Shown: piece by piece, positions 28,366-32,027 of the stretch | Layout of the letters: each line of letters opens with the position of its first letter | Numbering within the stretch: the first letter of the stretch is position 1 | DNA from: Kalmanozyma brasiliensis GHG001 | Lineage: Eukaryota; Basidiomycota; Ustilaginomycetes; Ustilaginales | NCBI RefSeq assembly: GCF_000497045.1 | Contig: NW_015961965.1 | Location: forward strand, 128,779-192,778 | Direction of reading: 5' to 3' | Length of the DNA stretch: 64,000 nucleotides | Translations under genes and position numbers: made by a program | The notes under the pieces: model-generated | What the model was told of the DNA's origin: nothing | The model's database searches: none | What the model saw: only the letters and a program-made list of their open reading frames with translations

Positions 28366-31300
28366 TCACGCGCGGAGCAAGGCACCCAGCTGTGCCTGCC
28401 AGATGATGGGCAGGTAGGCGACGCAAAGTATTGGCACAGTGGCCGATCCGAACAGCTTCCAGTGTGTTGCAAGCGCGGCCACCTCGTTTCTAATCGCTTC
28501 GACGCCGAAGGAAGAATGCAGGACCGCTGACCAGAGGACGGGACTGAAGAGCAGCGTCGCTGCACCCCGAACGAGGCGAACCGGCGAGAGAGCGTCCGTG
28601 GTGGAAGCTGGCGATGGAGATGGCCTGCCGGACGCAATTCTGAGCGCAGCATACGTCAAGATGGCGAGGAAAGCAGCAAGAGCAAAATTCAACACGCTCA
28701 AGACTGCCACTAGCATGCCGGCTTGCAGATAGGCAAATGCGATCAGAAGCGAGCCGACCCGACGCGCACGCTGCGTGGTGCAACGAGAGCGGAGAATCAG
28801 CGCCACGATGAGTGGGAAAGCTAGCAGGACTGCCCGTGCCGCAAAAGCAGGCTACAGGTGAAAATCAATCAGAAGAAGAAGATTTGGTCAGCCTCGCTGG
28901 CTCGGATCTTATATCGACGAGAATGTTGACCCGAACTTACCATCATTGGGTTCTCTGTTTGCTTTTCGAGCAAGTCGTCGCCGTGCCACAGCACCACTGC
29001 TCCTCCCAGGACAGTCGAAGCGACGCACGCGAGCGTCGTTGCGATCGGCCTCATCGATTCCCCCAGCCTGTCGGCATTGCCGTCTATCCTACCCTGCACA
29101 TTGTCTTCTCCTTCTACAACCGCAAGGTGCAGCCCCACCGCCTTCTCGCGATACCAAGCCATCGTTGGCGCCTCCGGCGGAACGTCCGCCTCCTTGCTAA
29201 GCCGTTGATCGAGCCCCGAAAGGACAGCTTCGCGCTCCCGCCTTGAGATTTCCTCTTCCGAGAACCAGAGTGCCATGCCACCGATGGTCAGCGCGATCGA
29301 CAGAAAGAGTGGAATCAGGATCGCCGTGCCAATCGGAACGAATCGACGCGGATTGAGAAGGAGGTAGAAGAATTTCGAATGATGGAGTCTCTCCAGCAGA
29401 TTCGACATGGAGCGCACGAAAGATTCGATGAGTCTGCCCATGTGGAAAAACCCGTATGGCCCTGTTGCGGGGACTGCGTAGAGTGTGACTGCGTCGACGT
29501 GGTGTCTTTGGAAGAAGCCGTGTGGGCCACTGGCTCGTCCGGGCACGCCGAAGCCCACCTGTCGCAACGAACCGCGAACACCGTTCTCGTAGTTGACGAG
29601 TTCGTACTCGACGTCTGGACGCAGCTTGACGCCCCATCGCTGAGCTAGCCTCTGCACTGGCACTTTCAGTAGTGATTGGGCCGACTTTTGACCGAAGGTG
29701 ACGGGCATACCTCCAGCCACGCTATCGGCGATGCGTACGACCGTGTTGACAACGTCCATATTCGGCAATTGACCATCAAAGCCTTCGTACTGGACTTCTA
29801 GAGAAGAGAAAGAGTCAGCGGGATAGTCGATGGAGATGGCGTTCCACACCTGCGAACCTCCTGCCGCTACTGGATCGACTTTGAGCCCGTCGGGAACGCT
29901 GCCGAAGTAGGCCGAAGACCATGCGTGGATGCCTTCGAGGTAGCCGTCGCTGATGACAAAGATGAGATCCTTACTCAAATGGGCCTGCGTGGACAGGTAG
30001 CGAGCAAGAACGAGGAGAGAAGCGACACCACGTACGTTGGTCCGCCGACGAGAGTCGGTGCTCTGCGCATCAGTGGTGTTATCAGCAGGTCCAAAGGGGT
30101 CGTTTTCGCCTTGCCACCGGCTGCGCCAGCTTGCAGTGAGGATGATAGCTTCGCGGCCATCGATTCGCGGTGTTGCCGACCTGGCATAGACGTTTGTACC
30201 GGATAGCACCAAGTCGCGATTTTGTAGTGGTGCATCGTGACGATAATTTTGGCGATTCGTCTCGAGACCGTATGAGTGGAGCTCGGAAAAGACGAAGTCG
30301 GCACGCTCCGCACCGGAGGCGTCGTCTAAGAGGGACACCTTTTCAGAGAGCATATCGGCGTACGTGACGTCAAAGTAGTCCCAATAAACGCGTGCTTGAC
30401 CAGGTTGAAGGGCATTTTCGTCGACGTAGGTGCCCTTGGACACCGGCGATCGCGGATGTGGCACGACGAAGATGAGCGCCACGCTGAGAAGAACGAGAAC
30501 TGGACGGAGGACAAGCGAGGCTCTGCCGAGAAGCGCCAATACACGACGCCGGGTCGCGATGCGGCGTCGGAAGGCTTTTCGCAGCTTTGCCTCTTTCTCC
30601 GCCTTGGCCTGCCGGGCTTGGGCGATGCGCTGTAGAGCTACCTCTCGTTTTGTTGCTTTGTCCTCGTCGTCGGACTCTGTCTCTCGGTCTGCATCGAATG
30701 CCTCCTTGCGGCTTGCGCGAAGACCATCGGTCGACAGCAAGTTGTCGACCTCGTCCTCTTCCTCGTCTTCCTCGTATTCCTCGTCGTGAAGCTCTGGTGT
30801 TGCCACTTGCCGATCTGCGACCGGGCCAGGGAGAGTGTAACAGCCAAAAACGAGAACGACGTGGCTGGCGAGGAGCACCTGCGACGACTCCTTCGTGGAA
30901 GGGAAGACATTCCAGCACCATTCGAGGGCGACCGGCACAAGGAGCTTGATGAATACCGGCAGCTTGGAGAACCACAAGAGCAAGGGCACTTGATGGAAGT
31001 ACCACGAATAGAACTGGTAATGTAAGCTTCGAGAGCAAAGTAAGCCGATCACGTTGGCGCTGAATGCGCAACAGAGGATCGCGCGCTTGTCTACTAGGCT
31101 GAGTTTTCGAGCTTTGTTGGACAGGTTCTGCACAATCCACTGAGGTCCTTGCGAGCCGATCGATGTCCAGCGGAACAGGCTAAAAAGCGCGAGAAGGAGG
31201 GCGTGAGTTGCGAGGAGACCCTTAGCAAAATGCTGGGACAGGAAGGTAGCCTCGGGAACGAATCGCCAATTGACAGTCCAGACGTAGAGAAAGGCTCTCG

Positions 31301-32027
31301 AGAAGTCAAAAGCCCCCTTGAGGTATGCATGCGGATCTTGCAAAGTGAACGGTAGGGAAACCAACGCTTGAACCAAGACGACGATCGTCATGTACGCGAT
31401 CGCGCCCTTTACGCCTCTGTAGTAGAAGGCAGTTGCGGCGACCCCGGGCAGGAAGAGGAGGACGTTCATCTTGACGCCCAATCCAAGGCTGAAGAGGAGG
31501 GCCGATAGCTTCCACTTGGTGTTGACTGCTGCGAAGAGAGCAAGATAGACGAGGAAGATAGCGAAGGGGTCGTTGAACATCCGAAGCAGGAAGATGGAAT
31601 AGATGCGCTTTGACAGAATCAGCGGCAGAACGGTGATTGGAGGCATGCCTGCTTGTCGGTAAAGGAGGGCAGCGATAAGGTTTATCGCCGTCAGGAGCCC
31701 CGCAAATACGTTCTGAGCCGGCAGAATGTTGGCGCCTCCATCTGTGAGCCAATTGAAGAATGAGTAGATGTAGAGGTGGACGGCTGGGTAGACACAGGGT
31801 CCGCTCCCGCCCTTTGGGTCGATCTTCGCGTAATCACGTTCGCCATCGAGGAAGAGAGCAGCCTGTGCAATGTAGGTCTGGAAGTCGATTTCGGTGAAGC
31901 TGATGCGTCTGATGACGGCCTGAGAGAGCGCAAGGGTCGATATAGTCAAGGCTGGGAAAGCAAAGGTATAGCCGTAGTCATCGAAGCAGACGCGCCGCAA
32001 GAAAGCGACGAGGGATGAGGGCGGCAT
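28366..32027 (-). CDS. ALG3-GAA1: ALG3-GAA1 fusion: Dol-P-Man mannosyltransferase joined to GPI-transamidase subunit
   Basis: Two exons: 32027-28941 and 28851-28366, with an 89-nt phase-0 intron (GTAAGT...CTGTAG). The product is 1190 residues. Residues 1-400 are a complete multi-span ALG3, the alpha-1,3-mannosyltransferase making Man6GlcNAc2-PP-dolichol: GPCVYPAVHLYIYSF, LRMFNDPFAIFLVYLAL, LGVKMNVLLFLPG, WTVNWRFVPE and RSLHYQFYSWYFHQVP. Residues 401-485 are a charged linker (EEYEEDEEEDEVDN, then Lys/Arg/Ala-rich). From about 495 a GAA1 follows with its first TM, KGTYVDENALQPGQARVYW, the peptidase-M28-like luminal domain, and C-terminal TMs continuing in exon 2. GAA1 is the GPI-transamidase subunit that presents the GPI lipid. 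The frame is continuous, and there is no Met between residues 213 and 559, so a separate GAA1 has no start codon. Both halves belong in the ER membrane. Confidence 0.9.

What the first reader, a model, noticed from the sequence alone, without database searches (positions are those of the whole stretch)
28366..32027. ALG3 and GAA1 fused in a single gene
Seen: one uninterrupted frame carries a full ALG3 (residues 1-400), an acidic then basic linker (401-485) and a full GAA1 with its first TM and luminal domain; a spliced last exon adds the C-terminal TMs. No in-frame Met exists between residues 213 and 559, so GAA1 cannot start alone. Known: in yeast and man these are separate ER proteins of two pathways, N-glycan assembly and GPI anchoring; both are normally single genes. 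Inference: the fusion would fix a 1:1 ratio and co-locate dolichol-P-Man use with GPI transfer, or be cleaved in the linker.
Basis: partly seen in the sequence, partly recalled or inferred. Interest (0 to 1): 0.88.

Follow-up and report, generated by a model that had tools for sequence, protein, structure and literature searches.

The report
Two ER glycosylation proteins permanently fused
In the smut-related yeast Kalmanozyma brasiliensis and its relatives, one gene encodes both an enzyme that builds sugar chains for proteins (ALG3) and a core part of the machine that attaches GPI lipid anchors (GAA1), two jobs that separate genes do in other fungi.

The parts
28366..32027 (-). ALG3-GAA1 fusion gene, ATG to stop (1190 aa)
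28941..32027 (-). exon 1: 1029 codons, ALG3 + linker + GAA1 into its C-terminal membrane part
28852..28940 (-). intron, 89 bases, GTAAGT...CTGTAG
   Evidence: the deposited protein has the same junction
28366..28851 (-). exon 2: 161 codons + stop, last membrane helices of GAA1
30828..32027 (-). ALG3 part (residues 1-400)
31884..31892 (-). E-I-D (residues 46-48) in the first luminal loop, the acidic motif expected of GT-C enzymes
   Evidence: invariant columns among the 22 fused proteins; acidic motif in luminal loop 1 per PMC6801728 (passages)
30573..30827 (-). linker (residues 401-485), acidic then basic, no Met, no intron signal
   Evidence: pLDDT under 50 at 407-441 and 447-455
30735..30752 (-). 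EVDNLL (residues 426-431), conserved acidic-LL motif of the linker
   Evidence: pattern found in 20 of 22 fused proteins (one of them ending LV), P0015 has it by eye, P0021 lacks it
30438..30572 (-). GAA1 N-terminal basic segment and first membrane helix (residues 486-530)
   Evidence: long helix 457-521 in the model, hydropathy 504-522; aligned with the first residues of human GPAA1
29334..30437 (-). GAA1 luminal M28-like domain (residues 531-898, borders approximate)
   Evidence: D758 = human GPAA1 D250, invariant
28366..29333 (-). GAA1 C-terminal membrane helices (residues 899-1190; the range includes the intron)

Best explanation
A single in-frame fusion of ALG3 (Dol-P-Man-dependent alpha-1,3-mannosyltransferase, GT58) to the N-terminus of GAA1 (GPI-transamidase subunit) occurred in or before the common ancestor of the sampled Ustilaginomycetes and has been kept. 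One 1190-residue ER membrane protein is made: ALG3's membrane part ends in the cytosol, a disordered acidic then basic cytosolic linker follows, then the first GAA1 helix crosses into the lumen. GAA1 takes its usual place in the GPI transamidase and the ALG3 domain works as a tethered, otherwise normal enzyme. Compatible topology made the fusion tolerable, and loss of GAA1's own start codon made it hard to reverse. Shown here: fused frame, sole copies in the assembly, conservation, one clade, complete predicted folds. Inferred: a single uncut polypeptide, dual function, tethering, the topology of this protein.
For: One open frame across both halves, linker with coding statistics and no donor-like site; only ALG3 and only GAA1 match of the assembly; both halves complete by Pfam and by fold: 9s6r 370 of 385 residues, 7w72 554 of 588; 22 of the 45 hits of a whole-length search have both domains, 13 with species names, all Ustilaginomycetes, 9 unnamed; the 17 fused rows of a 50-row GAA1 tree are one clade, 100/99, and the 99 stand-alone GAA1s listed all fall outside the 21 fused rows of a quick 120-row tree; 17 of 22 have no Met in 401-498 and 13 of 22 none in 401-558; conserved linker motif; ALG3 is modelled with 12 TMDs and a cytoplasmic C-terminus (PMC6801728, passages); the other GPI-T families match single loci.
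Against: No transcript, proteomic or enzymatic data. Orthologous DNA could not be read, so absence of introns in other species' linkers is seen only indirectly: two unnamed models (P0008, P0015) end shortly after the point where our exon 1 ends, as an unspliced ORF call would. 9 of 22 relatives have at least one in-frame Met in 401-558, so internal initiation there is conceivable. A conserved fused frame does not prove the product stays uncut. pTM is 0.65, so the model says little about how the two domains sit relative to each other.
Confidence: 0.75

Rival explanations
1. The fusion is translated as one chain but cut in the exposed cytosolic linker, releasing ordinary ALG3 and ordinary GAA1; the fusion is then only a means of co-expression.
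For: The linker is long (61-107 residues over the 22 aligned proteins), of low predicted order and partly basic; both halves keep complete folds.
Against: The conserved feature of the linker is acidic EVDxLL, not an evident protease site; cleavage sites were not searched for systematically. Nothing tested directly.
Confidence: 0.17
2. Two proteins are made from one locus by alternative transcription start, splicing, or non-AUG initiation upstream of GAA1's first helix.
For: GAA1 is essential in yeast (recalled), so independent supply could be useful; 9 of 22 relatives have an in-frame Met somewhere in 401-558.
Against: In K. brasiliensis no in-frame Met lies between 213 and 559, and Met559 is past the first helix; no donor-like site in residues 380-570. 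No Met column of 401-558 is shared by more than 2 of the 22, and only P0018 and P0022 have one around GAA1's basic start, residues 478-502.
Confidence: 0.06
3. Gene-model or assembly artefact: two neighbouring genes merged.
For: Such merges exist for ALG3: FAD-oxidoreductase + ALG3 models in Sordariomycetes, and P0017 (Ustilago loliicola) adds the nearby TAF4 gene.
Against: Here the DNA itself is one intron-free open frame across the junction. In 9 of the 10 FAD-oxidoreductase + ALG3 rows the ALG3 part keeps a Met within 12 residues of its projected start, while 20 of the 22 ALG3-GAA1 fusions have no Met around GAA1's start. The same fusion recurs in 22 proteins.
Confidence: 0.02

Closest known systems
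ALG3 (GT58), yeast structure 9s6r
   Different: Stand-alone enzyme with a free C-terminus. Of 119 stand-alone ALG3 rows, the 63 that reach 60 residues past SLHYQF include 19 with a dilysine-type end; 0 of 22 fused do, three of these being truncated models
GAA1/GPAA1, structures 7w72, 7wld, 8imx, 8imy, 9ub7
   Different: Starts with its own Met; here its N-terminal segment continues from ALG3
Stand-alone GAA1 of Malassezia and Exobasidiomycetes
   Same: Nearest relatives in the tree (join with Malassezia 92/85)
   Different: Not fused; ALG3 is a separate protein, on a contig of different length in M. yamatoensis
FAD-oxidoreductase + ALG3 gene models in Sordariomycetes
   Same: ALG3 joined to another protein in databases
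   Different: Look like neighbouring genes merged by annotation: a Met near ALG3's own start is kept in 9 of 10

Membership tests
ALG3 (GT58, PF05208) | Full-length family profile above cut-off | tested here: met
   433.8 bits, cut-off 23.6, profile 2-358 of 358
ALG3 (GT58, PF05208) | GT-C fold of ALG3 | tested here: met
ALG3 (GT58, PF05208) | Acidic motif in luminal loop 1 | tested here: met
   T45 E46 I47 D48 invariant in the 22-row alignment
ALG3 (GT58, PF05208) | Adds alpha-1,3-mannose to Man5GlcNAc2-PP-Dol | not testable with these tools
   needs an enzyme assay or complementation
GAA1/GPAA1 (PF04114) | Full-length family profile above cut-off | tested here: met
   270.1 bits, cut-off 28.6, profile 1-493 of 497
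GAA1/GPAA1 (PF04114) | First helix, luminal M28-like domain, C-terminal helices | tested here: met
GAA1/GPAA1 (PF04114) | Functionally important Asp (human D250, PMC8465894, passages) | tested here: met
   D758, invariant in the 22-row alignment
GAA1/GPAA1 (PF04114) | Partner families of GPI transamidase present in the genome | tested here: met
   Gpi16, Peptidase_C13 (taken as GPI8, not verified further), PIG-S, PIG-U: one locus each
GAA1/GPAA1 (PF04114) | Assembly in the GPI-T complex | not testable with these tools
   needs purification
Gene-model merge of neighbours | Own start Met of the second gene, or a stop or intron between the two | tested here: not met

The most novel reading that the evidence does not exclude
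The fusion has made ALG3 a permanent part of the GPI transamidase in a whole class of fungi: the first luminal mannosylation step of N-glycan assembly rides on the GPI-attachment machine, and the conserved acidic-LL linker is a docking or regulatory site, so that N-glycan precursor supply and GPI anchoring are coupled.
Probability: 0.22. Interest if true: 0.82.

Novelty: new variant of a known kind. Interest (0 to 1): 0.62.

Why it matters
Two textbook ER pathways, N-glycan precursor assembly and GPI anchoring, are joined in one polypeptide across a class that includes the smut fungi. If the chain stays whole, ALG3 sits in every GPI transamidase at fixed stoichiometry; deleting 'ALG3' in these fungi would also remove GAA1 (essential in yeast, recalled); and GPI-T purified from them should carry an N-glycan enzyme. 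It also appears to have spread wrong names: six stand-alone GAA1 records of Malassezia and Tilletia are labelled as the ALG3 mannosyltransferase (the cause is inferred).

Tried and rejected
Gene-model merge: rejected on the DNA and by contrast with what look like real merges. Second GAA1 or ALG3 copy: none matched. Hidden intron in the linker: no GT at 5 of 6 matches to GTRAGT; weaker donors were not excluded. Met depletion in the linker as a sign of selection: 6 Met in 2052 residues against 17 in 2671 in 34 stand-alone GAA1 N-tails and 13 in 2050 in 83 ALG3 C-tails; about twofold and the rows are related, so not claimed. Loss of a dilysine ER-retrieval end: 19 of 63 against 0 of 22; too variable to be defining. 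A split fusion in P0145 (414 aa, ALG3 only, on the fused side of the ALG3 trees): it stops at the same place as the M. yamatoensis model P0148, which an unspliced phase-2 intron would explain (inference), so it is counted neither way. EVDxLL as a relic of the ALG3 tail (Meira-type tails have DEEELTKSLL): possible, not established. Tree oddity: P. flocculosa groups with Thecaphora rather than with the other Ustilaginales in GAA1 (100/99); this does not touch the fusion but was not followed. Orthologous DNA: a viral-contig scan gave 75 pattern matches, none confirmed; the other collections at hand hold prokaryotes, phages and plasmids. Literature: of ten full-text searches, six aimed at the fusion or at gene fusions in these fungi and four at structure, topology or the species; no title or abstract start in the listings described the fusion. 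Only passages were seen in PMC6881057, PMC12244721, PMC12786357, PMC9098846, PMC6801728, PMC8465894 and PMC10491789. The library holds open-licence papers only.

Full report
What is there. The minus-strand gene at 32027-28366 has one 89-base intron (28940-28852) and encodes 1190 residues. The protein is identical to a deposited Kalmanozyma brasiliensis GHG001 protein whose NCBI name, 'Glycosyltransferase, ALG3', does not mention the GAA1 half. Pfam finds ALG3 at 26-382 and Gaa1 at 609-1179, both nearly complete. The assembly (17.27 Mb, 26 contigs) gives one ALG3 and one GAA1 locus, both this gene, and one locus each for Gpi16, Peptidase_C13 (taken as GPI8), PIG-S and PIG-U. Glyco_transf_22 (the ALG9/ALG12/GPI10/SMP3 kind, recalled) matches at four loci.

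The junction. Residues 401-485 are read in one frame with no Met, no stop and no donor-like site; that frame has the highest codon score of the six and scores higher than the flanking domains. In 486-558 the frame scores 0.113 against 0.126 for one reverse frame, so codon usage is not decisive there. The in-frame Mets are 1, 128, 150, 187, 213, 559 and later. Met559 lies past the first GAA1 helix (504-522 by hydropathy), so starting there would lose the helix that places the luminal domain.

Not chance and not a model error. Of 45 proteins found with the whole fusion as query, 22 carry both domains; the other 23 carry ALG3 with other or no partners. Thirteen of the 22 have species names: K. 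brasiliensis, Sporisorium scitamineum, S. reilianum, S. graminicola, Ustilago trichophora, U. loliicola, Pseudozyma hubeiensis, Melanopsichium pennsylvanicum, Moesziomyces aphidis, Testicularia cyperi, P. flocculosa (Ustilaginales), Thecaphora frezii (Urocystidales) and Violaceomyces palustris (Violaceomycetales), all class Ustilaginomycetes. A further record, P0171, has ALG3, the linker and the start of GAA1's helix before its frame breaks. P0017 adds TAF4 to the front; a TAF4 gene is also near this gene in our window (34930-36249), which suggests conserved gene order. As a control, ten FAD-oxidoreductase + ALG3 models of Sordariomycetes look like merged neighbours: 9 of 10 keep a Met within 12 residues of ALG3's projected start, whereas 20 of 22 ALG3-GAA1 fusions have none around GAA1's basic start.

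Origin. Stand-alone GAA1 occurs in Malassezia (Malasseziomycetes), Tilletia and Tilletiaria (Exobasidiomycetes) and many Agaricomycetes, and stand-alone ALG3 in Malassezia, Tilletia and Meira. In a 50-row GAA1 tree the 17 fused rows are one clade (100/99), next to Malassezia (join 92/85). In a quick 120-row tree the 99 stand-alone GAA1s listed lie outside the 21 fused rows (support 98). In the ALG3 trees the fused rows together with the truncated, unnamed P0145 are one side of a branch (95/91 with P0171; 93). Counted without P0145, the fused label needs two changes there. One fusion in the ancestor of the sampled Ustilaginomycetes is the simplest reading. Ustilago maydis is not among the named rows, and I cannot say why.

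Linker motif. E426-V-x-x-L-L is recognised in 20 of 22 fused proteins by pattern (P0020 ends LV), in P0015 by eye, and not in P0021; L430 is an invariant column. Its role is unknown: perhaps a relic of ALG3's tail, perhaps a docking site.

Function. Domain completeness, invariant residues (including D758, equal to human D250, whose mutation reduced activity in PMC8465894, passages) and sole-copy status imply that both activities are needed and supplied by this locus. Whether the chain stays whole is not shown. Advantage is not shown either; neutral fixation, tolerated by topology and locked by loss of GAA1's start, is enough to explain the pattern.

What is new. Databases already list both Pfam domains for these proteins, but the searches listed no paper that describes the fusion in title or abstract start. 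It is a new architecture of two known proteins, not a new kind of enzyme.

Noticed in passing
P0052, P0056, P0059, P0064, P0068, P0073: Stand-alone GAA1 proteins of Tilletia (1) and Malassezia (5) are named as the ALG3 mannosyltransferase although no ALG3 domain is listed; probably name transfer from the smut fusions.
   Followed up: partly
P0056, P0068, P0073: Three Malassezia GAA1 records also carry methyltransferase domains; not checked whether real fusions or merged models.
   Followed up: no
P0025-P0033, P0035: Recurrent FAD-oxidoreductase + ALG3 models in Sordariomycetes; 9 of 10 keep a Met near ALG3's own start, so probably conserved neighbours merged by annotation.
   Followed up: partly
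P0145, P0148: Two ALG3 models, one unnamed and one from Malassezia yamatoensis, stop at the same alignment place (a Lys), as an unspliced phase-2 intron at a shared site would cause.
   Followed up: partly
P0065, P0147: GAA1 and ALG3 records named as the fern Adiantum nelumboides sit among fungal (Exobasidiomycete-type) proteins in the trees: likely contamination of the plant assembly.
   Followed up: partly
window 34930-36249: TAF4 gene; merged with the ALG3-GAA1 gene in the Ustilago loliicola model P0017, suggesting conserved gene order.
   Followed up: partly
P0020, P0022 in the GAA1 tree: Pseudozyma flocculosa (listed in Ustilaginales) groups with Thecaphora (Urocystidales) with support 100/99.
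   Followed up: no
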